64,000 bases of DNA from Callaeas wilsoni (Eukaryota > Chordata > Aves > Passeriformes > Callaeidae), in contig VWPU01009386.1 of assembly GCA_013398955.1 (NCBI GenBank), forward strand, positions 59,847-123,846. Direction: 5' to 3'. The translations under genes were made by a program, and so were the position numbers. Below the pieces are notes generated by a model. It had not been told where the DNA came from. It saw nothing but the letters and a program-made list of their open reading frames with translations, and did not search any database. Of this stretch, positions 3,131-61,030 are shown piece after piece. Each line of letters starts with the position of its first letter. Positions within the stretch are counted from its first letter, which is position 1.

Positions 3131-3191
3131 GTGTTTGCCTTTGATCACTGCTTCTGGTCCATGGATGAATCAAACACCACAAAATATGCAG
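3131..3191 (+). CDS. KIF13A: KIF13A window exon 1 (motor)
   Basis: Residues 1-20 of the window translation, [20 protein letters not shown] plus one base. It is flanked by ttctacag and gtaaac. This is the conserved motor strand just before the region leading to the P-loop; the NTTKYAG spelling is KIF13A-specific. Probably exon 3 of the gene. Entry phase 0, exit phase 1. Confidence 0.95.
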
Positions 3192-26764: not shown

Positions 26765-26795
<31 letters not shown>

Positions 26796-41700: not shown

Positions 41701-44700
41701 CTGCTTCTTTTTTTGCTTATAACTCAATGTATGACTGACAAAGTACCTAGTGTGGTAGGACAGAGGGAATATGGAAATTGTTTTTACCTTTGTGTATAGA
41801 GGTGATTAATACTAGATTCCTAGTGCTATTAGTTTCCCTCCTTTCTAGGGATGGTGAAAGCTGAGGAGGGGAAAAGTGAAAGGAAAGAAAAGAAATTTAG
41901 TAGAAAAAATGCAGAGATACTATTTAGATTTTCAAAAAGCACCAAGTTGTTATTTGATAAGAATCAAAAACAGTCATCACTGAATGTGAAGGGGCTATTC
42001 CACATAGCCAAGAAAGTCCTTAAGAAGCATAAATTATTTCAACTGATACTGGATAAATTCAGATTGGAAATAGAACGTGATTTTAACAGTGATGGCAAAG
42101 GACAAGTGGAATGGGCCGCCCTGGGAAGCAAGGTGCCTTTTGTCAGAGAGCTGGCATTCAGTACCACAAGTAATCCTAACCTTAGATACAGATGAAAGTG
42201 TAAAACTTGAGATTAGTGATCTGCTTGCTCAGTCCTTTTTCTGACGCTGGATTCTGTGGGGATTTTTTTTTTTTATTTTAAATAAACATATTCACTAATA
42301 CTCAAATCATGGCTGAGCTGCTACAGTCTGTAATGAAACAAAAGTCTTTCTACCTATTAATAAGACTAGTTATTTGATTGTTGTGATTTTAACATTTTAC
42401 AAGTTTATGGCAGAAATGTTTGTATTCATGTTTTGGGTTATTACTGGGAATTTCTGTTGAGCGAAATGCATGGGTTTTTGTGTTTTACAAAATGTATTTT
42501 CTCCTACCAGAAGGAGGATGATGATGGTGGTGATATGGATAGTTACCAGGTATTGCTGCTGTTGCTGTCAATCCTGCGGCATGGGGCACAGCTAATGCTA
42601 ATGGCCAGCAACTGTCAAATGAACGAGCAAAAGCGGCTTTGAAATACACATGCTGTGCATTTTAGAGGCTACTTGGGCTATAAAACACTGCTATTTCAGT
42701 TTACCTTGTGACTTTATACTCTTAGTGTCCTCTCTTCTCTAGTACTCTGCAGTCAGCTCTCCTAACTGGCTATGTGAATTGCTGTGGTAATAAAAGCTTT
42801 GGAAATTTAATTTAGATGAAAGCAGTTTCTGGTGACTATCACACGGAAAAGAACCAGCAGCTACAGGCATCTTTTCCAGGCAAATTATGCAGCGTAGGAT
42901 ATTTTGTTTGTTTTCTAAAGAAAGTATCGTAACTTTTTATGTTGTGCTGTCTTCTGAAACACTTGAGTGAGAGAGAGGGGAGGATGTGAATGGGAGTAGA
43001 TCTAGAAGCTTCAGTGAAGCAGTTTTCTTTTATCTGCACAAAACCCAACCTTGACCCTGTGTTTCTGTGTGATAAGTCCCAATTTAGACAGTATAAAAGA
43101 AGACTCATTTTAAAAGGTGACCAAGAGCAGAAGAGGGAATCCCCCCAAAGTAAAATAAATTTCAGATTTCTGCATAGAAGACTTTTTTCTAATAGGCAGT
43201 CTTACAGAAGTAAAACCAGTTAGGTGAGAATGCTGACATCCCTTAAAATGATGTGTTAAGTTTCCTAGCAATCTCAAAAATATGATTTAAGGTACTAACT
43301 TCTTGTGGGCTGTTTATGCGCTTCCTGACATATCACAGAGAAGAACCAACCAGATTTTCTGTGATACCACAAAGCATGATTGCATGATGGGTTTTGTTTG
43401 CATGAAAAATCTTTTTAATTGCACTGACAGCAGCTGCTAGCAATGGAATTTTGTGCAGGTTTGAGGGCATACTGACCTGTCTAATCTTCAGGAGAACTTA
43501 TGATCAACAGATGATACCGGGTTTTCCTCTTCCATATATGCTATTCAAAAGTTTGATTGCCATTTCTGTGAGTAATTAGCCCGTGGTGTGTAATCTGTTC
43601 AGCAGCAGAGGCAGTCACATTTTCTTTTCTCCTGTTGAAATCTGAGACTTGAAAGGAAATAAACTTCCCTTCATGGGTAATGAGGTACTTAATCAGTGTG
43701 CATGTCATTCGGGGGAAAAAAATTTTTCTGCGTTGCGCAAGCCATTTAATATAAATTCTGATTAAATTACCACAAAAATTCATTGCCCTTTATTCCTACC
43801 CACATAGTCTAGTGACTTTCTTCTCTATTTCCATGTTAGGAAGAAGATTTAAATTGTGTACGAGAAAGGTGGTCTGATGCATTAATAAAACGCAGAGAAT
43901 ACTTAGATGAGCAGATCCAAAAGATCAGCAACAAACAAGGTTTGCAGCTTGAAGTCTCTATCGTACTTTATGCCCTATATCACCAAAGGTGTGTCTCATG
44001 TGTAATCCTAATCTCTTCCACTGTAGAAAAATCTGAGGATGATATAGAACGAGAAGCCCGGCTGGTGGAACAGTGGGTAGGGCTGACGGAAGAGAGGAAT
44101 GCAGTGTTTGTTCCAGCACCAGGCAGTGGAATTCCTGGTGCCCCTGCAAATTGGTATGTTCAGAAAACCCACTGGAGTTGTCAGCTTTTTGTACATAAAC
44201 TTCGCGTGCTGCAAGGTACAAATCTAAGGATGTTTTGGAGCTTCCTGTGTTCTCCTGTGCTACTGCAAACTGCATTCAGCTGGCAGAAGGCCTAGAAGGT
44301 CAGGTGCTGTTCTGAATGTAAGCAAGATTTGCTTAGCTAAGATATTACATAAAGTAGCTTTGAAATATCTTTCAAGGTTTGAAAATCACCTTTGAATATA
44401 ATGTAGTGTTTTGCAACTTTACACAACTGAGAAAATTATCCAGTAGTTTGATTCCTTTCAGAAAAAGAGTGATTGAAAGACGAGTGGTAGAACACATGAT
44501 AATGTCATTGATAAAGGATGGAGAGGGAAGAAACTCTGATCTCAAAGGATGTGTTCTCTGTTTCATCTGAATTTGTAATATATTTCTCTTTAGTTTCATT
44601 TAAATCTGTGTTTTAACTAAGATCTTTGGAGCTAACGTGCAAAAATGAGGAATGCAACATGTTAGGTTTGGGAAAGTATGGACAAGAAATACTCCTCTAA

Positions 44701-47700
44701 TCAAATGCACGCTAATGCCTCCAATAGTTTTCAGGCAGTAATGTAGCAATACTCTTTTCTCGCTGTTATTCCTCTTATCTGCCTGAAGTGTGCTGTGGTC
44801 ATATAGCTAAAAGTGTGTTTATAGGTATAAAGACTGCCAGTAGTTACATAGCTAGTTGTTTGGAGGGTTGCTGACCTTTATATATGAGATGACTACAACC
44901 AGTGAACTTCATAAGGAACAGAACAGGATGTTTAAAACTCTGGTCCTCACAGCAACTGCCGCGTGCTGTGTGGTGTGAATTGAGTTTTGACAACGCTCTG
45001 CATTTAGCTCTGTATGTTGAATGCTGTCTGTGCCACACAGGCATTCAGAGTAGCCATCAAAATGCCGACAGCTTTAGCCAGTGGTTGTAGTGAATGAATA
45101 TTGCATGGAGATCTGTTTGCCCAAATTAGCTTAGGTATGAATGTGCCTTCTTTGTTGCCAGCAGTTTGTTTTGTTTCAGGATTCCACCTGCAGGAATGGA
45201 AACACATATACCTGTCCTCTTCCTCGATCTGAATGGTATGTTGTAAAAACAGATTAAGAAACTTGTGGAGGGGGAAATGGGGGATTAGTTTGAGTAAATA
45301 AATTGTTAAATGGAAGAATGAACCTGAAAGGTGTAAGAACTCAAACAAGTCCTGGCAATGACAGTCTGATATGGCTTGTAAAGTGCTTTTTCTTCTGGTT
45401 GTGTATGTCGGCATAATTAAGCACAACTGTTTTAGAATAAAGATAAAAGTCAGGGGACACAGGAGTACAGTGATAGGCTGTACAACAGAAAATAGAATAA
45501 GAAAGAAAGCTTGGTTTGAATTAAACAGCAGATGAGGAAGCATTTTGATGTACAAATTCCCATGTCATTAAAGCACTGATGGAGAATCTCTCAATGCTTT
45601 CATAGCTCCTTCCACTGGCATATCTGCAGAGTCTTAAACAGCTCATTTAATGACGACTGTGTCAGGGCTATCATGAGCATTTTTTAGGGAATCTAAGAGT
45701 CCTCCCTTTGAAGGTGTTTAGTTCTAAATGTGAGAAGAATATTGATTTATATTCTTAAGACATAGATACACACTGTAAGTAACAAGAGACTAGAGGCAGT
45801 TCCACATTTAAGGATTGTTTAGGAAGCAAGTCTAATTACAAACCTAAACATAAAGCACAAGAGGATCCACAGGCTGTATCACATCCACCACTGAAGTGGG
45901 CTACTACACATATTTATATAGGCAATGCATCGATACCTGCTTTAGCAGATGCTTTTGGAAAGTGAAATACTGTCTTCCTTCATCTGTGCTCACAAGGAAT
46001 GTTTTTATTTGGGTTTTTTTTTTTGCTATCTGTAGGGATTAGCAGTCGAAAGATCAAATACGGTATTTAAACAGGTTGATTGTGTCATTGCACACCTTTT
46101 TTTTGTTTGTTTACCTAAAAGCCTAATGTAACCAGAACTGCTGTTCTAAATTTCTTTTGTATGCTGAAATCATCTTCAAAATGCTGCATAGTAATAAGAT
46201 TAAGTAGGATTAAATGTATTATGAAATTTGGGTAGGTCTTTATTACAACTTTGTATTACAACTTTGCCTCTAGATATTCATATCCTTTGGTATAAAACTA
46301 TTTCATTCTTTGCATATTTGTTTCATTAGCTGATGACCTCAGTGCCAATGAACAACTTATAGGTCCCCATGCATCAGGAGTTAACTCAATACTACCAAAG
46401 GAGCATGGGAGCCCATTCTTTTATCTGCCGATCATAAAACACAGTGATGATGAGGTAAATTGTGAGCAAGCCTCCTTCTTGACAGCTGCAGCTTGTGTTA
46501 ATGCTTTCTTCTTATGTTTTATGTCCTACTTCCATGTATTTAATCATTATTATTATGATGACCTTTTTGCCTTAGAAGTACCATCTGTATCTAGTGCTGC
46601 CTTGATTTTCTGGCCTATTTATTTAGAATTTAAGAGGATATGACTTGTTAGCTCTTTTGCCTTAATTCAGAGATGACAAGCTCTTGGCAAAAGAATAATT
46701 CAACTGCCTGACTCAAAATCCCTTTTCCTGCTTTCCTCACCCCTTCATCATTCCTCTTGCAGACTTTTTTCTTCAGAAAAAAACTACTTGGTTTATTGTG
46801 CACACTAGGCAAAGCTTAATACTTAAATAAAACCTTTTTCATTTGTAGCACAGAATTACTGTTTCTTAGATATATGGCTTGAGAATTGCTGGAAATTAAT
46901 GGTTCTGAATCCATTTTGGAATTTCTTAACCGATTCCTTCCATGTTCTGTGCCTACTCAGGCCATTGTTTGAGACCATTGCCAGAATAAATGGGACGGCA
47001 AAGTTGGGGAGAAGGCAGACAGAAGGAAAAAAAGCATTCTGCAGAACGAGTGCAAGTTTATTCTGTGGGGGATGTTATAACCTAATCCAACATAGATAGA
47101 AGATTTTACATTGAAATTAATAGACTTTTAATACAGTAGCAGTAGGATTTGTATTCCTTCATCCAGTCTTGCTTCTGCTTTCCTTTCCGTTTCCAGCCAT
47201 GTGAAGACTTCCTTTTGAGGCAGGGTTTGCACAGTGCAGGGATCGTGGTCATGATTATTTCCCCCAGTATCTTAACACCTCTTTTTCGCTTCTACTGATA
47301 AATTCCTTACTATGAAAAGGAGATTTGACTCCACTTTGTTCAATCATGCTGATTTTTCTCTCATTAAGAAATTGTTTTACTTCATTACAAATTATACCTG
47401 TTGTTAGAGTAATAGAATCTTTGATTTCCCTTTCCTTCCTCCACTTAATTTGTCTGCATAGGTTTCAGCCACTGCTGCCTGGGACTCTTCTGTCCACGAT
47501 TCAGTGCACCTGAATAGGGTAACTCCTCAAAATGAGAGAATTTACTTAATAGTGAAGACTACTGTGCAGCTCAGTCACCCTGCTGCAATGGAACTGGTAT
47601 TACGCAAAAGGATCGCAGCCAACATTTATAACAAGCAGGTAATAAGTTTATATATTCTTTTATTCCTTGTTTTGTTTCATAATCTTAATTTAATGAATGT

Positions 47701-50700
47701 GTTTCCTTAGCTGCTTGCTTCATTTTGTAAGTCTTACGAGAGAGAAATGAAAACTAGGTTTTTATAGGTTGCAGTGAAGCTGTGTACTGGTATATTTCTT
47801 TGAACTGTCCATTTTTCAACTGATTGAACTTAGTAGCGTTGTATACTGAGCATAGTGCTGTGAAGAGCACTTAAAATATCATAAATGCTAAAAAAAGTAA
47901 TTTAATAAATTATGGTTCTGATTGCCTTCATAATCAGATTTTGTGTTGCACCTTTTAATTTCTTAGAATGTTGTAAATAATAGTTATCGAAACAGTAACT
48001 GAAAATTACTTTCTTTCTAGAGTTTTACCCAGAGCCTGAAAAGGAGAATATCCTTGAAAAATATATATTATGCCTGTGGAGTGACTTATGAAATAGTATC
48101 CAATATACCAAAGGTAAATTATACTTTATTTCTCTGGCAAATTCACAGAAAACAACAGAATTGACCTACTGCAGTGGGTGATACTGATTAGAAAGTAAAT
48201 GTCCTGCTTTGCTGATATGAGACAGCTTGCCAAAGTGGATATATTGAAGTTCTGTGTGAGATTGTGTTTATCTTTAAACAGTTGAAAACTTTGGGGATTT
48301 TATTTTCTCTTCTACTATGTTTAACTGAGTTTCTGTAGCAGAGCTATTTTTGAAAGCTCATTAGTGTCTACAGGGAAAATATAGAGGGTACTCAGAGGAA
48401 TGTTCCAGGTCTGTGAAAACAGAATAGCTGGGAAGATGAGTTCACAGGAATATGAATTACTTTTTATGGAAAAAGCTCATACAAGTTGTAAATGTACTCT
48501 AAGATTTATTTTAAAGGAAAACAAACTGGACAAATGAAAACATAAATAGTCTCATCACTATGTAATTGTCACTTTGTTGCAGTACTCCTTAAATTTTAAA
48601 CTCTAGGGAAATCATGTCATATTTTAAGATTTGGGAAGGAAATTACATTTCCTTGCCTAGGAAGTTGTCATTAGTTGAGCCTTAACATACACAATTTCAG
48701 GTTATGTATGCATTATTTCTAGAATTGCATTTATCATAGCAAACGCTCAAAACTTCTCCTAAGCTTGATTTCTTCAATATCTTTTGCATCTCTATGGAAC
48801 AGCCCTGGATCATTGACTGTAATTAGGTTTGCTGCTTAAGTTTAAGATGCCCAATTCAAATTAATTTCTGGATTGAACTGGTCTAAAAAAGTGAACTAAA
48901 ACAATTGGCTTTCCTTTTTGAAACCTTCAATGGTGTAACTTCTACTTTAGGCCACAGAAGAAATTGAGGATCGTGAGACCTTAGCGCTGATGGCTGCAAG
49001 GAGTGAGAACGAGGGCACATCCGATGGCGAAACCTACATTGAGAAATACACACGTGGTGTGCTGCAAGTGGAGAACATTCTGAGCCTTGAACGACTAAGA
49101 CAGGCAAGGAACAGGCTTTTCTTGCACCCTTTGCGCTGGATTATGAGAATTCCAGAAGAGATGATTGATCTTTTAAAAATACTGTGTTGCGCTTTTTTCG
49201 GTTGGTTTTTTTTTTTTTTGGAGATTGTTGGACAGATAAAGACTAAGACTGTAAGACTGTAAATTACTGTAAAGACTGTAAGACTAAGTAACTTCTGTGA
49301 AATACAAATTTCCAGTGGCAGTGGATGTAGTAACTAAAGCTGGCAATGGTGTAGTACTCAAGACCTGAAGAGGCAAAGGCCAAAGAATAAATTTCAGACA
49401 GAAGCTTTGGTGGTTGTGTGTGCAAATTAAGATTTGTCAATGCAAGCCTTGATTGCTGCTGTTAGCCACACTGAAAAGAAGTCCCTATGCTTGCTCAGGT
49501 GTCCTGAGGAGACCATGGCGTTGCTGTTAGTGTTTTGTTCTCGTTACACAGGCAGTGACCGTCAAAGAGGCTCTCTCCACCAAAGCCAGGAACATCCGCA
49601 GGAGCATCAGCACTCCCAACGTGCACAACGTAAGGACCCTTCATCGTCCGGGGCGTTAGCACTGATGGGGCAGGGGCCACTGTCTGTGTCTGATGCAATG
49701 CTTGCACAGCGGGATATGCTAATGATTACTCTGTGCTGGGACTAACCAGCCTGGGGGAAAGCGGTCACGAAGTGAAACCCCTCCCCACAATTTTCTGTCC
49801 TAGGAGATAACAAAGTTAACAGGGAAGAGGGAGGGTTGGTTGAAACTCTTCTCCTTTTATAACGATACCCATTTAGGAAGTAGTTTAGGATGACAACTGC
49901 CCTGATTCAGATTACTTTTACCTCCAAGTCCCTTGAACTTTTTTCATAGTGTAAGGGGTATTTTCCATTTTGTGTGCATTTTATCTGTTCTCCTCTCACC
50001 CACTCATACAGTAGAAACATAGATGTCTTTATACATAATCTGGTGTGAAAAGAGAGAGCAAAACAGTTATTAGGACTAAATGATCACAGTTTGTCCTCAA
50101 GGTATTATATCTCACAGATAAAAGGTAGGCATTTTGTCATTCTGTCTGTTGGTGTTCCATAGGTGTCCTGCAGTCGACTGGATCTTTCTGCCTGCGATGA
50201 AGATGACAAGGTATGGAAATGTAGCAACAAACGGCTCACGTTCCTAGATTTCCCACCCCCACCACAAGCTAAATGTGTTTGAGAATTGGGGGGGGAGGAA
50301 GGAAAATAGAAATTGTATTTTCCTTGACGAGTATTTAAAGCAGTTGATTTACATAATATATCTTCAAAGTTCTGCACCAATTACATATTATTTTGCATTA
50401 AACCTTATTGTCCTTCTCTGCTTTTCATATTAGAATTATATAAACTGATATTTAAGAAAGAGAGCAAAACTTTAAATACTTCACTGACCAGTTAATTAGC
50501 TTTTGAACAATCCATTTCTGTGCGACAGGAAAATTGTCTGAAGTCAGTAATTGACGTACCTTTGGTTTCTGGGGTTTGGCTGACTTTAAAAAAAACCAAA
50601 CACCTGAGTTCACCTATTATTTTTTCTTCATTTGCCTGCGTCATCATGCAGATTTATGTGTTTTTGGTTTTTTAGGGTTGGTCTGAAAGTCACCTAGATA

Positions 50701-53700
50701 TATCTGACTGTTGTTCCAGTTATCAAGACGTATCATGCTATGGTACTTTACCCAGGGAGTCACCTCGCAAGAGCAAAGACGGCAGTGGTGAGACTTCATA
50801 TACGTAATGACAGTGCTAGTGGATTCTTATTTACTGCATTAAACTGAACATTAAATTCCCAGTGCTTTTTTCCTACTAAATACGTTATCCAGCTCCTACT
50901 TAAGGAGCTAGGAAATAGGTTTTTTAGCTAGGAAATCCTTTTCAGATAGCTGGCTATCTGGAAATAGGGGAGAAAGGGAGAAATGCATAAGACACCCAGG
51001 AAAGGGTGTAAAGTTGAGAGTATCCAAGAAACCAAGAGGAGGGCAGAAGAACGTGCTAAATATAAATCAAAACTGTAGAAGAAATAAAAAGAAAAAACCC
51101 ACCCAAAACAAAACAAAAAACCACACAGACAGAAAAGAACAAAAACCAGCTGCTGTTATTTTATGAATTTGAAGATGGAGATGCTTTTTTTTAAAGTGGG
51201 AAGTGTCCTCAGACAGGTTCTTTACATCATGTGTGGATATTGGCTGTGCCTCCATCTCAGTGTGTCACAGGTGCCTTGTTTCCTTCAGGTCACATTGACC
51301 AGGCAGTGCAGGTAGAAATACTGCTGCAATAAAGTGGGACTGGGGGTTTATTCATCGCTTCCTTACTTATAATTTCCTTTTTGATCATCTTGGCTGTGCA
51401 GGATGGCTGGCTTGGTTACAGGGCAGATTTGCAGTGTTGTGGGCAGAGGTCAGATGAGGCACAGGAAGCAAAGAGCTTCTCAGTTCCAGTTTCAAGGACA
51501 CTTCCCATCTTGTTTTTATGACCAAGATGAAAAGGAGAAATGTTTGAGCCTCAGAATGGAGGAGGCAGATACTGCTGTTCTCTGCTTTCCTTCTGTTTCC
51601 AGACTTCTCTGAAGATCTCACTGAGCTCTGCATTATTTCATGCCTAGGCCAGTGGTTAAATACCAAAATACTGACATTTTTCTGTAGCCAGCAACTTGCC
51701 AATTGCATGGCTTAACCTTCAGTTGTTTTGAAATATGCTCTTGCAGTCAGGATATGAAGAACTGAAATACACTATTCTTGCTTTTTTACCTAGGTGTTGT
51801 AGCAGAGAATTCCCATGCTTTAATGGCCAGCCCTTTTAAAGCATTTTCTCCCCAGCCACCAAAGTTTTTCAAGCCCTTAATGCCAGTGAAAGAGGAACAT
51901 AAAAGGAAGACCCCACTTGAAAGCCGACCTCTGCTTAGTCAAGAGGTAATCTTTGGAAACCACCTGCTTTTTTTAAAGGAGATGGACTGATTTTGTGTAC
52001 TTGGCAAATCATTTGCATCTGTTGCAACAGAGTTTTGTAATTCTCTGGTAAAATTATTCAGGCCACTCTTTATATGTGGTGGAGTTTTGCTGTTTGTTTT
52101 TTTACCTGAATACTGGGTTTGTGGGTTTTGGTTTTTTTTTTTTTACTTCTTGGTATGTACTCTCCTTTACAGGATACTTCTATTTTAAAGTAGCAGTAAC
52201 CTACTTTTTTTTATATTCCTCAGTAAGATGTTGGTGTGGTTTTTTTCATAGATCAAATGTAATTCTGTGGAAACTATTCTAGGGTGGTTATAATTCTGGC
52301 CTTTCTTCCTCACCCTCAAACTCTGGGAGGAGTGCATGAGTTTCCCTACCCATTAACTTGAATTTTGATATCCGTATGGCCAGCATGGGTGTTTCACCTT
52401 CATCACGTCTTCACACCTTTCTAACTTGGCACCCATTTGGCACCATGGTCAGAGCTGTGGTTTGTGTGATGTGTTGTGTGTCTCAACCTTTGCAGAGCAT
52501 GCCTCCATCTCAGGTGCACTGTGCTGGCTGTGCTGTGCCTGCAGGAAGCAGTGCCAGCAGCATGCCTGAGGAGAAGATTGTAAGTTTTGTACCAGTTTTT
52601 GTCTCGAGGCCTGGTGGTGGGCTCAGGGCCATTTGGTGGTGGGCTTGAGGCACTCACGCTACTGCAGCAGGAGAAAGACGTTGTGAGGTGGATATAACCA
52701 CTTGTGACTGATTGTAGGTTATGGTTATAACAGTTGCTTGCCTGGCTTGCAAAAGCATTCTGTCATTGGAACTAACTCCACTGTGGTTTGGTGTTTTCTT
52801 TTTGTTTTGCTTTGGGTTTTAATGTTTATATGTCATTTATGTTTATATGTCTTGTGGGGTGGGAGGAGAGGGGAGGCTGTAGTGTTTACAGGGCACAAAT
52901 GATCAAGTAGAAGATGGGTTAGTGAGCCATGCTGTTGTCACTCTAATATACCTTGTGTGTTACCTAGATTTTGTGACTATACCCCAGAGTAAATGGAATG
53001 ATCCCATTTGGTGTAAGTAACCGTGCACTTAGGTGTGGGTACACTATAAAAAGCTTATAATTGCCTGACATGGAAGTAATATGACTAAAATAAGATTGCC
53101 GCTCTTAATTAACCTGCAGCCTGTCTTCATCATAATTCAGGTGGAAATTGAGGTGGAGGGCTTTTGTTTTAATCTTCACCTGCTAAATCCTTTTCTCACT
53201 GCTGCTTCAACAAAAGGTGTATCATCATTTCTGCTGTATGATGGTTTTGGGGCTGTGGAACATGCCTGCAAATACTTGCTTTAATTGGAGCTTTAGATTT
53301 AAAATTCAGAACCTTCAAATTATTTCCTGTAAGTCTTATGGGACACTTTTCCACAAAATGCTAGTGTTGGATTCTTCCTATTTAACAGTTATTTTCATTC
53401 CTACTGTATATGCAAGCCATTAAAAAACCTGTTCTGGATTTCTAATGCTATTTTGTAGGTCGTTAGACCCCAAAGTATCCTGAGTGTTCTGGTGTATATA
53501 TTTGAAGCTTGGCTGCTTGGTTTGGGTGGCAGCTGTTTTATTCTTGATCTTGTTAATTTTCCATAAGGTAGCTGACGTGCTGACTCGCGCTGAGTCACTG
53601 ATACAAATAGCATGAAGGTATTTGGAAGAAAAAAATCTAGTGGGTTGAAAAAACATCCCTAGGAAAATAAATTGTTACAAAACTTTCCATAGCAACTTGA

Positions 53701-56700: not shown

Positions 56701-59700
56701 TTATACAAAGTTATTTGAGCAGTCTTGGCTATTATGAAGTGCAGGAAACATTTTCAAGAGGATGTTTATCTTGATGTGTTGGTACTCTGTGCTCATGTGG
56801 TTAACTGTTCTGCTTTTCCTTTTACATTGGTGAATCACAGCAAGTGTCTGAAAGCATCCAGCTACGTCAGATACCACACAGGATCTGCCTTGATTAGTAT
56901 TTGAAGTCTGTGATGCAAATAAAGGAACTGAGAAATAATGGGTGCTTGAGTTTCTCTAAAGGACTTAGCAGTTTTCGTTTTTCCTAAAATACCATTATTT
57001 CTAGTAGGCATTTGCTGTAAACTAACCATTTTTAATATATATATGTGTGTATACATGTACATATGTTTATACCTGCATATATATGTATAAATGAAGACAT
57101 AGATGTATATAGAAAAGGAAGTACTTAGAAAAGCATCTACGTGGAGTCCTGCCTGCAATATTTTATCTTGAGGGAGCAGCCCTACCATGTTGCTGGAGTC
57201 TTTCTTAGATGCATCTTTAGCGAATGAAGTCCTCAGCTTCAGATGGACTCTTGTGAAAGCCACATCTGTGGTCTGGTCATGGTGCATCTCCACGCATCAC
57301 CAAGGGGAAATTCAGGGAGGCACCTCCAAATTCTGCCAGGGTGATTAGTGTCACTTATTTCCCTCCAAACATGTACATGTATGCATACAAATGGTTCCTT
57401 GAAGACTTGCTATAATATTTCATCTTTTTGCTTGTATATTCAAACATCTTGAACATGTTCAGCTGTGATAGCCAGGGGTAACCAAAATTCTTTAGCCTCG
57501 CTGATATCAGGTTAATAGAAAATCCCACTGTGCAAAGTTTTTAATAATCCCAAAGTTTTTAATAACCTGTATTGGAGCAGGGACTCTGTAAGGCCTTTTC
57601 CATTCATATTTATGTTTATCATGTTAAGTGGTGAATTAACTATACAGTACCTTCAGTATTGTATAGTTATATTACAGTAGTTATTGCATAGTTATATACT
57701 ATATATATAGTTACATTGTATTCCCTAAATCATGGGAGAAAAAAGTTTGTGGATGAAAATATTTAGCTTTCCTTTTATTACTTTATATTTTCTGAACTAT
57801 TTAGAATTTATTTTCTAAAAATTTAATAGCTCAGTTTAGATAGGATATGTTCCCAGCAGCTCTTTTCAATGGTGTCTTCCATTCTTCAGTTAAAGAATAT
57901 TAAAGGTACATATTTCTCCATGCTCAGAAAGGAAAAAAATTAAGGATGGTTAGTTTATTTTGAAAACCTCAGTCACAGGTTCCTAATCCTAATTCCTCTC
58001 TTCATTTGCAGGACTCTGAGGAGGAAGACAGTGAGTTGGAGGCCATTAATAAGAAACTGATAAGTCCACAAAGTTTTCAAAATTTCCGGCCTTATGTACC
58101 AGAGGAGTTTGCTGACTTCAGTATTTACAATGCTAGCCTGGAGAACAGGGAGTGGTTTTCCTCTAAATCAGACTTCATGAGCTCACGTGTTCTTGAGAAA
58201 GAGGTATCCCGCAGCCCCACCACTAGCAGCATCACTAGTGGCTACTTTTCCCACAGTGCCTCTAACGTCACCCTGTCTGACATGCTTGTTCCCTGTAGTG
58301 ATAGCACAGACCAGCTAGCCAGTCACACCAAGGAGCTGGACTCTAGTGATCCCTCAGGATCATCCCTTGCACATGATTTAAGATCTTCTTTGAACAAGGA
58401 ATGTCGAGAGTCAGAAAAGGAGTTAGCGAGAGAGAAGTTACCCGTGTTACCACTGAAAGAAAACAGTGCCTTAACAGAGCAAGTACCACTGTCGTTCAGT
58501 GCCACTGACAGAGACTCTCAGCAGTTACCCAGAGCTGGATCCCTCTCAGCTCTAAGTTCCTTGGATGGCAAAAACACCATTGAATTTTCAGCATGTGAGG
58601 TGACAGTCGAGCACATGACGGACGTTCTGGAAGATCACTCCTTTACTGAGTTCATGGGCGTTGAAGACGGGAAGGACTTCGACCATTCAGCAGCTCCACA
58701 GTCGTGTTCCCTTCTGTCCTCTAATGGAGCGAGTGCCTCGGAGTCACCCCGAGGCCTTGGCAAGGGGCAGAGCACATGTAAGGGCCAGCAGAGCTCTGCA
58801 GCAGCAGCAGGCAATGACTGGCTTGTGGATGCTGTGGAAAGCCCTTTTTGTTCTGGACTGGTGAAGGACACTTCAGACCCTGAGACATATCCCAATGCTT
58901 CTGTGGACGATTTTATTACGAAGGACCACTTGGATGGTTCTGATTGTGAAGAAGGTGCTTCTGCAGATCAAGCCCGCGTATTGCCGAGCTGGGTGGCCGT
59001 GGGCGAGCAAGTCTGTGTTGGAAGTAATAAGATGGGTACAGTGAGATACGTTGGAACGGTGGATTTTTCAGCTGGAATCTGGGTTGGAGTTGAACTCAAT
59101 GTTCAGCTGGGTAAGACTAAATGTTGTTCTGGGTTATCTATGCAGCTAGTGTGACCAATTTTTAAAGCCACAGTACAATCATTCCTTCCAGTTCAGTCCT
59201 GGGAAGTACCTCCAGTTTCATGAAGCTTGGTATCTGATATGCCCAGTTCTTGGCTTTCTGGTTATAGGGATGCTCTGATCCCTTTTTAACTGTCTGAAAG
59301 CCCTGCTTTTGCACGTTGTGGTAGTTCCCCATTGGTACTCATCTGGTTTTACAGATCAGAGAAACAAGCAAAGCCTAAAATTGGCAGATTTTTTTAAAAT
59401 CAGTGTGCACGCATTCATGAACAGTGCTAACAGTGTGCATCACTTGTCAGATAGGTTTACTCTCAGTGGCTTTTAGAGATTTATTGCTGTTTTCCACTGG
59501 GGAAAGATGAATTCCAGAGCAAAGGTTTTCTTTAACTTCACTTCAGAGAGGTCAGAAAAAGTCAGTCCTCTGCAAGTGTTAAGAGACTTCTATAGAAATG
59601 CTTCAGGTCACTTAAAAAGATGTTTTAAGTAGTTTAATAGGTAATACCACTTATACCAGAAGTTTGTCTCCTAAATTTTAAGCTTTGTGAGCAATTGGTT

Positions 59701-60266
59701 TTGAGGACAGCTTATTTTGCAAAATAAACACGTGCTTGACTTTTTAAACTGTTAGTTAACAAAGCAATATTTTAGAAAATCATCTTTTTGGTCACATTTC
59801 AAGCCCTCCTTTCCAGATTTTGTTCTCCCTAGTGCATGGTGAGCATCTGGCTCCACCACTCAGCAGGAACAATCTTGAATATTTGACAGATAACCAAAGC
59901 TATTCACACGTCAGTGACTCAATTGTATGTGCTAATGGCAGCACCAGTATTTAAACTTGTGTATTTCTTTCCGTTGAAGGGAAGCACGATGGAATTGTGA
60001 AAGGCAGAGAGTACTTCCACTGCAAACCTCGACACGGTGTTTTTGTTCGTCCTGAGCGCCTCAGCAAAGCACCAGCTCCCACAAGGAAATGGAGTAGCAC
60101 TTCCCGGTCTCAGGCATCTTCCACTTCAGAGAAACGGAAGAGTTCTGCGCTTCAAGGCTCATCAGCCACTCCCAAGACAGGAGGAGACGTCCTCTGCCAT
60201 TCAGGAGATGCAGCGGCTTCTGCTTTTTCTAGGAAACAGGAGAACAGGAAATCTTGGATTAACTAA
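3131..60266 (+). CDS. KIF13A: KIF13A, kinesin-3 family motor (37 exons in window; N-terminus missing)
   Basis: Plus-end-directed microtubule motor of the kinesin-3 family. KIF13A is known to carry mannose-6-phosphate receptor/AP-1 vesicles and recycling-endosome and melanosomal cargo. Joining 37 exons gives an uninterrupted 1930-residue frame ending in TAA at 60264-60266. Seen in order (window-relative residues): P-loop GQTGSGKS 49-56, switch I SSRSH, switch II DLAGSE, neck coiled coil ~320-375, FHA ~385-486, coiled coils ~545-655, KIF1B/DUF3694-like region ~980-1240, serine-rich tail ~1310-1790, CAP-Gly ~1796-1865. Paralogue-diagnostic stretches ([41 protein letters not shown]) match KIF13A, not KIF13B. 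About 53 N-terminal residues are encoded upstream of the window. The CAP-Gly end makes the protein longer than the ~1805-residue human form I recall. Coordinates span introns; exons are listed separately. Confidence 0.96.
3192..10515 (+). other. KIF13A intron (7.3 kb)
   Basis: Longest intron in the window. It contains an antisense CR1 fragment at about 6610-6765 (listed separately) and a poly-A run near 9797-9809. Otherwise no exon, RNA gene or repeat was recognised. Short open frames on both strands show no family resemblance. Confidence 0.9.
6610..6765 (-). repeat. CR1 LINE fragment, antisense
   Basis: The reverse complement reads like the 3' part of chicken repeat 1. It has the recognisable runs cactgg-cacaagcagcccagag and ccatccctgg-acgtgttcc, and a TTTACT-like stretch equivalent to the usual TTCTTCAC motif. 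It is 5'-truncated and also lacks the terminal ATTCTATG repeats. Bounds are approximate. An old, diverged copy that supports a bird or other sauropsid genome. Confidence 0.8.
10516..10608 (+). CDS. KIF13A: KIF13A window exon 2 (motor, first half of P-loop)
   Basis: Encodes [20 protein letters not shown] followed by [10 protein letters not shown], residues 21-51, and ends within the ATP-binding P-loop GQTG|SGKS. Flanks are ttctag and gtgagt. The [10 protein letters not shown] wording distinguishes KIF13A from KIF13B. Confidence 0.97.
10609..11098 (+). other. KIF13A intron (490 bp)
   Basis: Nothing recognised apart from splice signals; the polypyrimidine tract before ccttttag is strong. Confidence 0.9.
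11099..11279 (+). CDS. KIF13A: KIF13A window exon 3 (motor, P-loop to DLLDPKG)
   Basis: Residues 52-112. Completes the P-loop (SGKS) and encodes [20 protein letters not shown] and [20 protein letters not shown], canonical kinesin motor signatures. Flanks ccttttag and gtgagt. Confidence 0.97.
11280..12299 (+). other. KIF13A intron (1.0 kb)
   Basis: AT-rich intron; no gene, RNA or repeat recognised. Confidence 0.9.
12300..12387 (+). CDS. KIF13A: KIF13A window exon 4 (motor)
   Basis: Residues 112-141, [20 protein letters not shown] then SQLAVTNFE. Flanks ttttgtag and gtaaat. This is the motor core segment between DLLDPKG and the switch I exon. Confidence 0.97.
12388..13672 (+). other. KIF13A intron (1.3 kb)
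   Basis: No feature recognised beyond splice signals. Confidence 0.9.
13673..13807 (+). CDS. KIF13A: KIF13A window exon 5 (motor, switch I)
   Basis: Residues 142-186, phase 0 at both ends. Carries [20 protein letters not shown] and the switch I sequence [11 protein letters not shown], which senses the ATP gamma-phosphate. Flanks gccctag and gtacgt. Confidence 0.97.
13808..14325 (+). other. KIF13A intron (518 bp)
   Basis: No feature recognised; the acceptor is catctatgcag. Confidence 0.9.
14326..14438 (+). CDS. KIF13A: KIF13A window exon 6 (motor, switch II)
   Basis: Residues 187-223. Encodes [20 protein letters not shown] with the switch II DLAGSE, then [17 protein letters not shown]. The donor gtacga follows AAC AA; the lysine codon is completed by the next exon. 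Confidence 0.97.
14439..19404 (+). other. KIF13A intron (5.0 kb)
   Basis: Contains a short sense CR1 3' tail at about 19225-19296. A 606-nt stop-free stretch lies on the minus strand at 16889-17494 but has no recognisable family. No RNA genes seen. Confidence 0.9.
19225..19296 (+). repeat. CR1 LINE 3' tail, sense
   Basis: Shows the typical CR1 end: ggagcaggg, then tgatctctgg, then ttccaactta and the terminal attattctatgat motif. Only about 70 bp survive. Identification rests on remembered CR1 consensus. Confidence 0.75.
19405..19516 (+). CDS. KIF13A: KIF13A window exon 7 (motor)
   Basis: Residues 224-261: [20 protein letters not shown] then [17 protein letters not shown], the conserved alpha4-L12-alpha5 microtubule-binding part of kinesin motors. 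Flanks aattatag and gtaatt. Confidence 0.97.
19517..19945 (+). other. KIF13A intron (429 bp)
   Basis: No feature recognised; acceptor gcactacag. Confidence 0.9.
19946..20158 (+). CDS. KIF13A: KIF13A window exon 8 (motor end and neck)
   Basis: Residues 262-332. Encodes [20 protein letters not shown] and [20 protein letters not shown], ending the catalytic core, then the neck helix [19 protein letters not shown], which has heptad spacing typical of the kinesin-3 neck coil. Flanks cactacag and gtaaca. Confidence 0.97.
20159..21755 (+). other. KIF13A intron (1.6 kb)
   Basis: AT-rich; a T-run near 20488. No gene or repeat recognised. Confidence 0.9.
21756..21866 (+). CDS. KIF13A: KIF13A window exon 9 (coiled coil)
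   Basis: Residues 333-369, [20 protein letters not shown] followed by [18 protein letters not shown] charged helical stretch forming CC1, which in kinesin-3 motors can fold back to inhibit the neck. Phase 0 at both ends. Confidence 0.97.
22024..22050. repeat. (TTTG)n microsatellite
   Basis: About five tandem TTTG units in intron between the coiled-coil and FHA exons. Simple sequence. Confidence 0.8.
22495..22513. repeat. poly-A tract
   Basis: Run of adenines in an A-rich intronic context. No retroposed sequence recognised 5' of it. Confidence 0.7.
23049..23183 (+). CDS. KIF13A: KIF13A window exon 10 (FHA start)
   Basis: Residues 370-414, [20 protein letters not shown] then [20 protein letters not shown] and VYYLK. 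The [20 protein letters not shown] string is the hallmark entry to the kinesin-3 FHA domain. Phase 0 at both ends. Confidence 0.97.
23184..24341 (+). other. KIF13A intron (1.2 kb)
   Basis: No gene, RNA or repeat recognised. Confidence 0.9.
24342..24472 (+). CDS. KIF13A: KIF13A window exon 11 (FHA core)
   Basis: Residues 415-457, [20 protein letters not shown] then [20 protein letters not shown]. The GIGI-EHCEID part is the FHA phosphopeptide-binding core. Exit inside the codon of NAR. Confidence 0.97.
24473..26240 (+). other. KIF13A intron (1.8 kb)
   Basis: No gene or repeat recognised; acceptor ttctttcag. Confidence 0.9.
26241..26327 (+). CDS. KIF13A: KIF13A window exon 12 (FHA end)
   Basis: Residues 458-486, [20 protein letters not shown] then LWGNNHFFR. 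The VNG and [13 protein letters not shown] motifs are standard FHA landmarks. It is followed by a short 109-bp intron (26328-26436) that contains only splice signals. Confidence 0.97.
26437..26603 (+). CDS. KIF13A: KIF13A window exon 13
   Basis: Residues 487-542. Begins [18 protein letters not shown], a basic patch, then an acidic/serine stretch ([19 protein letters not shown]) and [11 protein letters not shown]. Strongly KIF13A-like. Flanks actcag and gtaagg. Confidence 0.96.
26604..31777 (+). other. KIF13A intron (5.2 kb)
   Basis: Contains a TG/TA microsatellite near 26750-26812 and a T-run near 30677-30694. No coding exon, RNA gene or interspersed repeat was recognised in the remainder. 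It ends in a long polypyrimidine tract before tttttag. Confidence 0.9.
26750..26812. repeat. (TG)n(TA)n compound microsatellite
   Basis: Alternating TGTGTG, then about ten TA units, then TA-rich imperfect sequence. Purine-pyrimidine alternation makes it a likely length-variable locus. Confidence 0.9.
31778..31988 (+). CDS. KIF13A: KIF13A window exon 14 (coiled coil)
   Basis: Residues 543-612. [20 protein letters not shown] and [20 protein letters not shown] form a coiled coil, then [20 protein letters not shown], which is more variable. Base composition is noticeably more GC-rich than the surrounding intron. Confidence 0.96.
31989..36557 (+). other. KIF13A intron (4.6 kb)
   Basis: No exon, RNA gene or recognisable repeat. 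Contains several short T-runs. Unexplained by recognised families. Confidence 0.88.
36558..36720 (+). CDS. KIF13A: KIF13A window exon 15 (coiled coil)
   Basis: Residues 613-667, [20 protein letters not shown] then [20 protein letters not shown] and [14 protein letters not shown]. Helical stalk element highly conserved in KIF13A. Flanks ccacag and gtaatg. Confidence 0.97.
36721..37361 (+). other. KIF13A intron (641 bp)
   Basis: Nothing recognised beyond splice signals. Confidence 0.9.
37362..37502 (+). CDS. KIF13A: KIF13A window exon 16
   Basis: Residues 668-714, [20 protein letters not shown] then [20 protein letters not shown] and WKEKIPE. Phase 0 at both ends. Conserved post-coiled-coil segment of the KIF13 stalk. 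Confidence 0.97.
37503..39147 (+). other. KIF13A intron (1.6 kb)
   Basis: No gene, RNA or repeat recognised; a run of A interrupted by C around 37645-37662. Confidence 0.9.
39148..39297 (+). CDS. KIF13A: KIF13A window exon 17
   Basis: Residues 715-764, [20 protein letters not shown] then [20 protein letters not shown] and [10 protein letters not shown]. The [16 protein letters not shown] string is the KIF1/KIF13 family signature at the start of the KIF1B-type domain. GC-rich. Followed by a 162-bp intron (39298-39459) with no content of its own. Confidence 0.97.
39460..39624 (+). CDS. KIF13A: KIF13A window exon 18
   Basis: Residues 765-819, [20 protein letters not shown], then an acidic/serine run ([15 protein letters not shown]) and HRAKKLSCR. 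The serine cluster is a KIF13A feature. Donor gtgagt. Confidence 0.97.
39625..40181 (+). other. KIF13A intron (557 bp)
   Basis: No feature recognised. Confidence 0.9.
40182..40355 (+). CDS. KIF13A: KIF13A window exon 19 (C2-like segment)
   Basis: Residues 820-877, [20 protein letters not shown] then [20 protein letters not shown] and [18 protein letters not shown]. The beta-strand pattern [10 protein letters not shown]...VFCQYTFW resembles a C2-type fold in kinesin-3 stalks. Confidence 0.97.
40356..40916 (+). other. KIF13A intron (561 bp)
   Basis: No feature recognised. Confidence 0.9.
40917..41068 (+). CDS. KIF13A: KIF13A window exon 20
   Basis: Residues 878-927, [20 protein letters not shown] then [20 protein letters not shown] and [10 protein letters not shown]. 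Conserved KIF13 stalk. Followed by a 113-bp intron holding only splice signals. Confidence 0.97.
41182..41314 (+). CDS. KIF13A: KIF13A window exon 21
   Basis: Residues 928-972, [20 protein letters not shown] then [20 protein letters not shown] and QLRQ, the start of the DUF3694/KIF1B-like module. Followed by a 92-bp intron with no content of its own. Confidence 0.97.
41407..41553 (+). CDS. KIF13A: KIF13A window exon 22
   Basis: Residues 973-1021, [20 protein letters not shown] then [20 protein letters not shown] and LQRGLDSYQ. Part of DUF3694. It ends in DSYQ, as does the next small exon. Confidence 0.97.
41554..42510 (+). other. KIF13A intron (957 bp)
   Basis: Contains a 345-nt stop-free stretch at 41851-42195 without recognisable family (see findings). 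A T-run lies near 42262. No repeat identified with confidence. Confidence 0.88.
42511..42549 (+). CDS. KIF13A: KIF13A window exon 23 (39-nt cassette-type exon)
   Basis: Residues 1022-1034, [13 protein letters not shown], phase 0 at both ends, so its omission leaves the frame intact. Flanks cctaccag and gtattg; the donor is not a strong consensus. Human KIF13A has a counterpart (acidic, ending MDSYQ), and human isoforms I recall differ by 13 residues, consistent with alternative use. Confidence 0.93.
42550..43839 (+). other. KIF13A intron (1.3 kb)
   Basis: No gene, RNA or repeat recognised. Confidence 0.9.
43840..43939 (+). CDS. KIF13A: KIF13A window exon 24
   Basis: Residues 1035-1067, [20 protein letters not shown] then [13 protein letters not shown]. 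The donor is the weak gtttgc, followed by an 87-nt intron that is open in frame. Confidence 0.95.
44027..44153 (+). CDS. KIF13A: KIF13A window exon 25
   Basis: Residues 1068-1109, [20 protein letters not shown] then [20 protein letters not shown] and ANW (last codon split). Acceptor tccactgtag, donor gtatgt. Confidence 0.97.
44154..45179 (+). other. KIF13A intron (1.0 kb)
   Basis: No feature recognised. Confidence 0.9.
45180..45235 (+). CDS. KIF13A: KIF13A window exon 26
   Basis: Residues 1110-1128, [18 protein letters not shown], a 56-nt exon. The [16 protein letters not shown] string is shared by KIF13A and KIF13B. Flanks ttgtttcag and gtatgt. Confidence 0.96.
45236..46329 (+). other. KIF13A intron (1.1 kb)
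   Basis: No feature recognised; the long minus-strand open frame across 45004-45555 overlaps exon 26 and looks like chance. Confidence 0.9.
46330..46454 (+). CDS. KIF13A: KIF13A window exon 27
   Basis: Residues 1129-1170, [20 protein letters not shown] then [20 protein letters not shown] and DE. The [10 protein letters not shown] wording is KIF13A-specific. Flanks ttcattag and gtaaat. Confidence 0.97.
46455..47461 (+). other. KIF13A intron (1.0 kb)
   Basis: No feature recognised. Confidence 0.9.
47462..47638 (+). CDS. KIF13A: KIF13A window exon 28
   Basis: Residues 1171-1229, [20 protein letters not shown] then [20 protein letters not shown] and [19 protein letters not shown]. Phase 0 at both ends; conserved KIF1B-type domain. 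Confidence 0.97.
47639..48020 (+). other. KIF13A intron (382 bp)
   Basis: No feature recognised; acceptor tttctttctag. Confidence 0.9.
48021..48113 (+). CDS. KIF13A: KIF13A window exon 29
   Basis: Residues 1230-1260, [20 protein letters not shown] then [11 protein letters not shown]. End of the conserved stalk. Phase 0 at both ends. Confidence 0.97.
48114..48950 (+). other. KIF13A intron (837 bp)
   Basis: No feature recognised. Confidence 0.9.
48951..49103 (+). CDS. KIF13A: KIF13A window exon 30 (GC donor)
   Basis: Residues 1261-1311, [20 protein letters not shown] then [20 protein letters not shown] and [11 protein letters not shown]. The exon ends AGACAG and is followed by gcaagg, so the intron is of GC-AG type. 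Confidence 0.96.
49104..49551 (+). other. KIF13A intron, GC-AG type (448 bp)
   Basis: Starts gcaagg and ends ttacacag. Contains a small imperfect tandem of AAGACTGTAAGACT-like units at about 49238-49290. Otherwise empty. Confidence 0.9.
49238..49290. repeat. short imperfect tandem repeat (AAGACTGT-like)
   Basis: The unit aagactgtaagact recurs three times with small variations over about 50 bp inside an intron. Simple local duplication. Confidence 0.7.
49552..49629 (+). CDS. KIF13A: KIF13A window exon 31
   Basis: Residues 1312-1337, [20 protein letters not shown] then TPNVHN. The [10 protein letters not shown] motif looks like a basophilic kinase/14-3-3-type site; that reading is inference. 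Flanks gttacacag and gtaagg. Confidence 0.97.
49630..50162 (+). other. KIF13A intron (533 bp)
   Basis: No feature recognised. Confidence 0.9.
50163..50210 (+). CDS. KIF13A: KIF13A window exon 32 (48 nt)
   Basis: Residues 1338-1353, [16 protein letters not shown], matching the human VSSSRPDLSGFDEDDK segment as I recall it. Phase 0 at both ends, so skipping would preserve frame. Flanks ttccatag and gtatgg. Confidence 0.94.
50211..50675 (+). other. KIF13A intron (465 bp)
   Basis: No feature recognised; a G-run near 50287. Confidence 0.9.
50676..50787 (+). CDS. KIF13A: KIF13A window exon 33
   Basis: Residues 1354-1390, [20 protein letters not shown] then [17 protein letters not shown]. Disordered serine-rich tail that aligns residue by residue with the human KIF13A tail. 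Flanks tttttag and gtgaga. Confidence 0.95.
50788..51793 (+). other. KIF13A intron (1.0 kb)
   Basis: No feature recognised. Confidence 0.9.
51794..51945 (+). CDS. KIF13A: KIF13A window exon 34
   Basis: Residues 1391-1441, including [20 protein letters not shown] and [19 protein letters not shown], a proline-rich stretch nearly identical to human KIF13A. Flanks acctag and gtaatc. Confidence 0.97.
51946..52495 (+). other. KIF13A intron (550 bp)
   Basis: No feature recognised; T-runs near 52133. Confidence 0.9.
52496..52579 (+). CDS. KIF13A: KIF13A window exon 35
   Basis: Residues 1442-1469, [20 protein letters not shown] then SSMPEEKI. Aligns with human SMPPPQAH...GSSMPVE. Human carries a short insertion before IDSEEE that is absent here in the simplest joining. 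Flanks ctttgcag and gtaagt. Confidence 0.92.
55831..55848 (+). CDS. KIF13A: candidate in-frame KIF13A microexon (18 nt)
   Basis: GAACTGTGGATTTCAGAT would add ELWISD between exons 35 and 36, both phase 0 at this junction. It has a TATTAAT branch-point-like sequence at 55804-55810, a pyrimidine tract, acceptor ctaaag and a perfect donor gtaagt. The splice context is seen; use as an exon is inferred. Confidence 0.4.
56222..56650 (+). repeat. CR1 LINE 3' fragment, sense
   Basis: Diverged copy of chicken repeat 1. Recognisable pieces are ggggagaggctggagtatc, ccagtgacaggacatgagg, cactggaatgagttgtgca and ggttatagagatctc. The typical 3' end has gagattgggctaattgacctc, ccttccaatcc and an attctgtgattattctg end. 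It is 5'-truncated, as usual for CR1, and encodes no intact frame. Confidence 0.88.
57035..57115. repeat. TA/TG-rich simple sequence
   Basis: Imperfect alternating TATATA, TGTGTATACATG and related units; low-complexity DNA rather than a transposon. Confidence 0.65.
58012..59110 (+). CDS. KIF13A: KIF13A window exon 36 (large tail exon, start of CAP-Gly)
   Basis: 1099 nt, residues 1470-1835, by far the longest exon. Starts [20 protein letters not shown], contains the KIF13A-specific [33 protein letters not shown] and [11 protein letters not shown] segments of a disordered tail, then changes at about residue 1796 to [20 protein letters not shown] and [19 protein letters not shown], the N-terminal half of a CAP-Gly domain. 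The known KIF13A tail and the CAP-Gly are in one continuous frame in one exon, so this is not an assembly join. Flanks ttcatttgcag and gtaaga. Confidence 0.96.
59111..59979 (+). other. KIF13A last intron (869 bp)
   Basis: Splits the CAP-Gly domain at the first glycine of the GKHDG motif. Holds an AATAAA at 59723-59728. Reading through the donor gives 14 further residues and a TGA at 59152-59154. No repeat recognised. Confidence 0.9.
59980..60266 (+). CDS. KIF13A: KIF13A window exon 37 (last coding exon, CAP-Gly end and stop)
   Basis: Residues 1836-1930. [20 protein letters not shown] then [10 protein letters not shown] completes the CAP-Gly domain (GKHDG in place of the commoner GKNDG; YFHC and G-FVRP are standard). 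A serine-rich, basic end follows and terminates [12 protein letters not shown], close to the KIF13B ending ENRKSWAS. CAP-Gly domains bind EEY/F tails of tubulin and end-binding proteins. Confidence 0.96.
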
Positions 60267-61024: not shown

Positions 61025-61030
61025 AATAAA
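61025..61030 (+). terminator. candidate poly(A) signal AATAAA
   Basis: Canonical hexamer about 760 nt after the stop codon, followed within 30-55 nt by a GT/T-rich stretch (ttgcacttgttacttgctgg) suitable as a downstream element. Confidence 0.6.

What the first reader, a model, noticed from the sequence alone, without database searches (positions are those of the whole stretch)
58012..60266. A KIF13A gene that ends in a CAP-Gly domain
Seen: an unbroken frame runs from unmistakable KIF13A tail sequence (VSRSPTTSSITSGYFSHSAS) through the same exon into a CAP-Gly domain (SWVAVGEQVCVGSNKMGTVR ... GKHDG ... YFHC ... GVFVRP) and ends ENRKSWIN. Established: among the vertebrate pair, the CAP-Gly is the hallmark of KIF13B; the human KIF13A protein I recall (~1805 aa) ends in unrelated sequence. 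Inference: the CAP-Gly is ancestral to KIF13A and KIF13B and was lost or replaced in mammalian KIF13A, so in this lineage KIF13A may also bind tyrosinated tubulin or end-binding tails, changing cargo-motor or track selectivity.
Basis: partly seen in the sequence, partly recalled or inferred. Interest (0 to 1): 0.75.

Follow-up and report, generated by a model that had tools for sequence, protein, structure and literature searches.

The report
Bird KIF13A motor keeps CAP-Gly tail
This bird gene encodes the transport motor KIF13A with a microtubule-gripping CAP-Gly domain at its tail, a feature usually credited only to its sister KIF13B; relatives from fish to marsupials have it too, and the placental mammals examined appear to have lost it.

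Summary
Exon 58012-59110 ends inside a CAP-Gly domain, which exon 59980-60266 completes in frame; the protein ends ENRKSWIN. Motor and stalk trees place the gene with KIF13A, not KIF13B. The same genome also has KIF13B, whose CAP-Gly is split by an intron in the same glycine codon and phase.

The domain is not peculiar to this lineage. Database proteins named KIF13A carry motor and CAP-Gly in birds, an alligator, turtles, lizards, amphibians and marsupials, and fish KIF13A tails have it too. Placental sequences that reach this point end without it. Of 26 placental-type read-through ORFs from unnamed sources, five are long enough to reach the old domain and two of these still hold an eroded CAP-Gly half.

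Function is inferred: the domain should bind tyrosinated tubulin or EB-type tails, as that of KIF13B does (PMC10404244). Annotated CAP-Gly KIF13A proteins already exist in databases, but two papers I saw in passages say KIF13A lacks the domain. Ordinary as a gene; useful as a correction and a natural experiment.

The parts
3131..51945 (+). KIF13A motor, FHA, stalk and DUF3694 exons (34 of the 36 coding exons placed in the window; the first 53 residues, by starling KIF13A numbering, lie upstream)
   Evidence: tblastn with Acridotheres KIF13A P0122; joined 36-exon frame has no internal stop and is 1862 of 1903 identical to P0122 (exon 17 should start at 39148, not 39145)
58012..59110 (+). Penultimate coding exon: KIF13A tail and first half of the CAP-Gly domain
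   Evidence: GCAG acceptor, GTAAGA donor
58999..59110 (+). CAP-Gly domain, first part (Pfam profile 1-34 ends at 59100)
   Evidence: Pfam E 1.1e-8
59111..59979 (+). Intron, phase 1, inside the first Gly codon of the GKHDG motif
   Evidence: gtaag...gaag; same codon and phase in KIF13B of the same genome
59980..60266 (+). Last coding exon: second part of CAP-Gly (to 60062), basic/serine-rich linker, ENRKSWIN, stop TAA
   Evidence: Pfam E 1.7e-9
60240..60263 (+). C-terminal motif ENRKSWIN, shared with KIF13B (ENRKSWA[NST])
52977..53012 (+). Candidate alternative upstream exon end (LYPRVNGMIPFG) before a GTAAGT donor, matched by MIPFG at the start of P0001

Best explanation
The window carries the KIF13A gene of a bird in its ancestral vertebrate form, with a complete C-terminal CAP-Gly inherited from before the KIF13A/KIF13B duplication. 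The likely mechanism: the motor walks toward plus ends on endosomal cargo while the tail CAP-Gly grips EEY/F tails of tyrosinated alpha-tubulin (or EB/CLIP proteins), helping landing and rebinding as shown for KIF13B. In placental mammals the ancestral exon gained an internal 5' splice site after ...ENDQ, a new terminal exon replaced the old end, and the CAP-Gly exon decayed. Shown: gene identity, intact domain, distribution among listed hits, shared intron, eroded remnant in two placental-type ORFs. Inferred: tubulin binding, effect on motility, the splice-site route (read from proteins, no placental DNA seen) and its order.
For: Motor tree (24 rows) and stalk tree (31 rows), quick method, split KIF13A from KIF13B at SH-aLRT 100 with the window in KIF13A. 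Named KIF13A proteins with PF00225, PF12473 and PF01302 in birds, Alligator, turtles, lizards, salamander, caecilian and marsupials; fish KIF13A tails with PF01302 (sequences). KIF13B of the same genome has the same phase-1 intron in the same Gly codon. Mean pairwise identity of the CAP-Gly is 0.953 among 10 birds and 0.818 among 25 rows, against 0.64-0.81 and 0.42-0.62 in the linkers. AlphaFold model of relative P0001: CAP-Gly blocks pLDDT 85-94 (whole chain mean 47), best Foldseek matches are CAP-Gly structures including EB1-bound p150Glued and KIF13B 2COW. Eroded CAP-Gly in P0041 (42.1 bits) and P0040 (18.9 bits) against at most 9.5 bits in 10,000 shuffles; both fall in the placental clade, 99/99. 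KIF13B CAP-Gly affects landing and run length on tyrosinated microtubules (PMC10404244: abstract and model section).
Against: No transcript of this species was seen. The motif is GKHDG, not GKNDG (H also in CLIPR-59 1WHH). Nine UniProt models of birds, a crocodile, a turtle and a monitor lizard end before the CAP-Gly; their ends differ and three read the last exon out of frame, so I take them as artefacts. By the same token five of the seven named placental models (P0036, P0060, P0061, P0062, P0066) stop short with odd ends and say nothing; only P0034 and P0035 reach ...DQG. 24 of 26 read-through ORFs show no remnant: 21 end before the expected place, and three long enough (P0027, P0038, P0059) have none in frame. 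Teleost KIF13A rows lack the RKSW end (only the sturgeon P0022 of 13 fish rows has it; P0067 is cut at the exon end). Monotremes were not seen among the listed hits.
Confidence: 0.9

Rival explanations
1. The gene is really KIF13B, or a chimera of KIF13A and KIF13B.
For: The CAP-Gly is the published hallmark of KIF13B, and its best solved match is KIF13B.
Against: Both trees put the motor and the stalk in KIF13A; whole-protein identity is 97.8% to starling KIF13A against 57% to KIF13B of Passer and Rhea; a separate KIF13B locus exists in the same genome; the CAP-Gly shares 72 of 74 residues with starling KIF13A and 38 of 74 with Passer KIF13B.
Confidence: 0.01
2. KIF13A acquired its CAP-Gly secondarily, by conversion or exon capture from KIF13B, rather than by descent from the common ancestor.
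For: Same intron position and same C-terminal motif could also come from copying; the stickleback domain (42 of 74) is little closer to the window than KIF13B (37-39 of 74).
Against: Present from fish to marsupials, with identity to the window falling roughly with species distance (72 of 74 starling, 66 alligator, 54-55 marsupials, 42 stickleback). Recalled, not tested: Drosophila Khc-73, the single pre-duplication gene, has a CAP-Gly. No CAP-Gly tree was built.
Confidence: 0.05
3. The domain is present and folded but no longer binds EEY/F tails, serving instead as a fold for motor autoinhibition or another partner.
For: GKHDG replaces GKNDG in the KIF13A rows; some birds and fish have GKHNG; CAP-Gly domains of CYLD bind ubiquitin (PMC8511506, title and abstract start in the listing; structures).
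Against: Strong conservation of the domain and the match to EB1- and tubulin-tail-bound CAP-Gly structures.
Confidence: 0.15

Closest known systems
KIF13B / GAKIN (kinesin-3), CAP-Gly 2COW; Fan and McKenney 2023, PMC10404244
   Same: Motor, FHA, DUF3694 and C-terminal CAP-Gly; intron in the same Gly codon and phase in this genome; ends ENRKSWA[NST]
   Different: Separate paralogue: 57% identical over the protein; GKHDG here instead of GKNDG; KIF13A-type tail between stalk and CAP-Gly
Human KIF13A isoform a (1805 aa), PMC9081326 (table seen in passages)
   Same: Same family and, by the named placental relatives, orthologous motor, stalk and tail up to ...ENDQ
   Different: No CAP-Gly; its end from 1792 is VIIPEA plus eight residues, 14 in all, and the primate-type read-through ORF P0050 (unnamed source) runs ENDQ + VIIPEAAFWVLCCQ, also 14; isoform d has GGTTSR there, as P0031 and P0032 do
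Vertebrate KIF13A predictions with CAP-Gly in NCBI/UniProt (e.g. P0122 Acridotheres, P0174 Alligator, P0222 Monodelphis)
   Same: Same domain order; orthologous
   Different: Only sequence divergence; this window is one more member

Membership tests
KIF13A orthologue | Motor and stalk group with KIF13A, apart from KIF13B | tested here: met
   SH-aLRT 100 in both trees, 24 and 31 rows
KIF13A orthologue | KIF13A tail EEFADFS...SRSPTTSSITSGYFSHSASN | tested here: met
   Shared, with small changes, with named KIF13A of birds, reptiles, mammals and fish
KIF13A as described in PMC8576264 and PMC9081326 | Absence of a CAP-Gly | tested here: not met
   CAP-Gly present here and in non-placental KIF13A; I read this as a fault of the criterion, since the orthology test is met
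KIF13B | Motor and stalk group with KIF13B | tested here: not met
   KIF13B lies elsewhere in the genome
CAP-Gly domain (PF01302) | Profile score over the curated cut-off, GKxDG motif, CAP-Gly fold | tested here: met
   35.2 and 37.9 bits against 26.5; GKHDG; fold match on relative P0001, not on the window's own chain
CAP-Gly domain (PF01302) | Binds EEY/F C-terminal tails | not testable with these tools
   needs purified protein

The most novel reading that the evidence does not exclude
The textbook KIF13A, known from human and mouse, is the exception: placental mammals, on their stem or early after it, lost a CAP-Gly through a new 5' splice site inside the penultimate exon, leaving a fossil exon in the genome. 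In other vertebrates both KIF13 motors would sense microtubule tyrosination, and KIF13A may also be made as a short motorless CAP-Gly protein from an internal first exon.
Probability: 0.6. Interest if true: 0.6.

Novelty: new member of a known kind. Interest (0 to 1): 0.48.

Why it matters
KIF13A function (recycling endosomes, AMPA and serotonin receptor transport) is described from placental systems in the papers I saw. If non-placental KIF13A carries a working CAP-Gly, track choice of KIF13A cargo may differ between placentals and other vertebrates, results may not transfer between mouse and chick or zebrafish, and the CAP-Gly should not be used to tell KIF13B from KIF13A. The loss is a ready-made test of what a kinesin tail CAP-Gly does.

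Tried and rejected
Considered and rejected: KIF13B identity; a chance or frame artefact; bird and reptile annotations without CAP-Gly as real isoforms (nine models with mutually different ends). A synteny check downstream failed because the contig ends at the window's end. The first 53 residues were not found with confidence in the 19.8 kb upstream. The 35-residue alternative exon known from human and present in Anser, Struthio, Alligator and others was not found in the window's intron by a four-motif search, which is weak. Literature: searches; of the 14 papers holding both KIF13A and CAP-Gly I looked at passages of 13 (more of one), not PMC7230609; none of those passages reports a CAP-Gly in KIF13A of non-placentals. 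Two of 26 KIF13A rows (P0188, P0195) were dropped from the conservation count because an anchor pattern missed them.

Full report
Observation. The frame that starts after the acceptor at 58012 stays open to the donor at 59110 and continues in the exon 59980-60266. The split glycine codon G|GG restores LGKHDG, the core of a CAP-Gly. Each half scores over the Pfam cut-off alone, and the joined tail finds 34 distinct PDB sequences, KIF13B 2COW first.

Which gene. Exons from 3131 to 60266 give 36 coding pieces and one open frame of about 1,900 residues, 1862 of 1903 identical to KIF13A of the starling Acridotheres. In that check 33 introns were GT-AG, one GC-AG, and one non-canonical only because I set exon 17 three bases early. 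Trees of the motor (24 rows: 12 KIF13A, 11 KIF13B, window) and of the stalk (31 rows: 19, 11, window) separate the paralogues with SH-aLRT 100 and place the window in KIF13A; both were quick trees without bootstrap. The same genome holds a second locus on contig C5190 that matches Passer KIF13B at about 90% and has its own CAP-Gly.

Origin of the domain. In that KIF13B gene the CAP-Gly is cut by an intron in the same glycine codon after its first base (KIF13A CTG G|GG AAG, KIF13B TCA G|GT AAG). All 11 KIF13B rows end ENRKSWA[NST]; the KIF13A tetrapod rows end ENRKSWI[NK] or close variants such as EIRKSWIN in lizards, and a sturgeon ends DNRKSWVS. The teleost KIF13A rows end soon after the CAP-Gly without this motif, so the end motif was lost or replaced there while the domain stayed.

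Distribution. One search (145 hits, 120 listed) found fish and amphibian-like tails with PF01302, and seven named placental proteins without it (elephant, bat, sheep, colobus, lemur, dingo, pig). Five of these seven stop early with odd ends and are not evidence; the elephant and bat ones reach ...DQG. One search (867 hits, 120 listed, sized to full-length proteins) listed KIF13A with motor and CAP-Gly in many birds and in Alligator, turtles, lizards, Pleurodeles, Rhinatrema and marsupials (Petaurus, Phascolarctos, Trichosurus, Notamacropus, Dromiciops, Vombatus, Monodelphis, Antechinus, Sarcophilus). No placental and no monotreme appeared among the 120 listed; the rest was not visible, so absence there is not shown.

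Selection. On 25 aligned rows the CAP-Gly (0.818) and the C-terminal motif (0.938) are more conserved than the linkers (0.417-0.620); two other tail stretches, around EEFADF and SFTEFMG, are conserved too (0.905, 0.873). This is protein identity only; no codon test was possible.

Loss in placentals. Transcript-like ORFs of placental type end ...ENDQGGTTSR, ENDQGSTGTR, ENDQGTGAAR (P0031, P0032, P0037, P0039), and the bat protein ends ENDQGSRTSTAR, whereas other ORFs read DQV.. on, as expected of a GT donor placed in the ancestral exon. That is read from proteins; I had no placental DNA. The marsupial Petaurus reads ENDQQLNST... through to the CAP-Gly at that place. P0050, which groups with Colobus at 99/96, reads 14 residues past ENDQ, beginning VIIPEA, and stops; the human isoform table gives VIIPEA at 1792-1797 of 1805, against GGTTSR in isoform d (PMC9081326, passages). 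A profile of the first CAP-Gly half scored 42.1 bits (E 7.6e-14) on P0041 and 18.9 bits (E 1.3e-6) on P0040, of 26 read-through ORFs given; shuffles of the two (10,000) reached 9.5 bits at most. In marsupials and alligator the domain's GEQVC lies 60-70 residues after this place; five of the 26 ORFs run that far, two with the remnant and three (P0027, P0038, P0059) without. P0041 has lost conserved glycines and gained residues, so it is eroded. P0040 and P0041 are from unnamed sources but fall with placentals at 99/99.

Mechanism. For KIF13B, the CAP-Gly biases landing to tyrosinated microtubules and is proposed to aid rebinding during runs (PMC10404244, abstract and model section). The modelled CAP-Gly of the relative P0001 (its last 60 residues equal those of the crow model P0161; one residue apart from the window in the 74-residue domain) has block pLDDT of 85-94 and matches p150Glued-EB1 and CLIP-170 structures. 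I infer the same role for KIF13A here. From recall, groove residues (Phe, Trp, Lys of GKxDG, Phe and Arg of GVFVR) are kept and only Asn to His differs.

What is known. PMC9081326 says that KIF13B differs from KIF13A by its CAP-Gly (passages), and PMC8576264 uses the domain to tell them apart (passages). PMC9203973 gives the domain to Kif13B/GAKIN proteins (passages). PMC10404244 does not mention KIF13A in its main text. Database annotation already contains CAP-Gly KIF13A, so the object is not new; I saw no paper passage that draws the conclusion, within the searches.

Verdict. Confirmed, ordinary for a non-placental vertebrate, and informative because placental KIF13A looks like the derived form.

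Noticed in passing
window 52977-53012: MIPFG before a GTAAGT donor in the intron 51946-58011; the transcript-like ORF P0001 starts MIPFG then joins the 58012 exon, with an in-frame stop just upstream in the window: a possible internal first exon for a motorless tail and CAP-Gly isoform. No other of the 240 proteins then held has IPFG.
   Followed up: partly
window 60240-60263 and KIF13B rows: KIF13A and KIF13B share a deeply conserved last motif ENRKSWx, of unknown role; the teleost KIF13A rows seen lack it.
   Followed up: partly
public KIF13A models P0017, P0024, P0025, P0068, P0211, P0226, P0229, P0232, P0235: UniProt gene models of birds and reptiles drop the CAP-Gly, apparently through invented introns, read-on into introns or wrong frames in the last exons.
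   Followed up: partly
proteins P0151, P0194, P0220: Gene models of a swallow, a quail and a turtle join a sirtuin domain (PF02146, SIRT5 in two names) with KIF13A, perhaps neighbouring genes run together.
   Followed up: no
window 61025-61030: AATAAA about 760 bases after the stop, a candidate polyadenylation signal.
   Followed up: no
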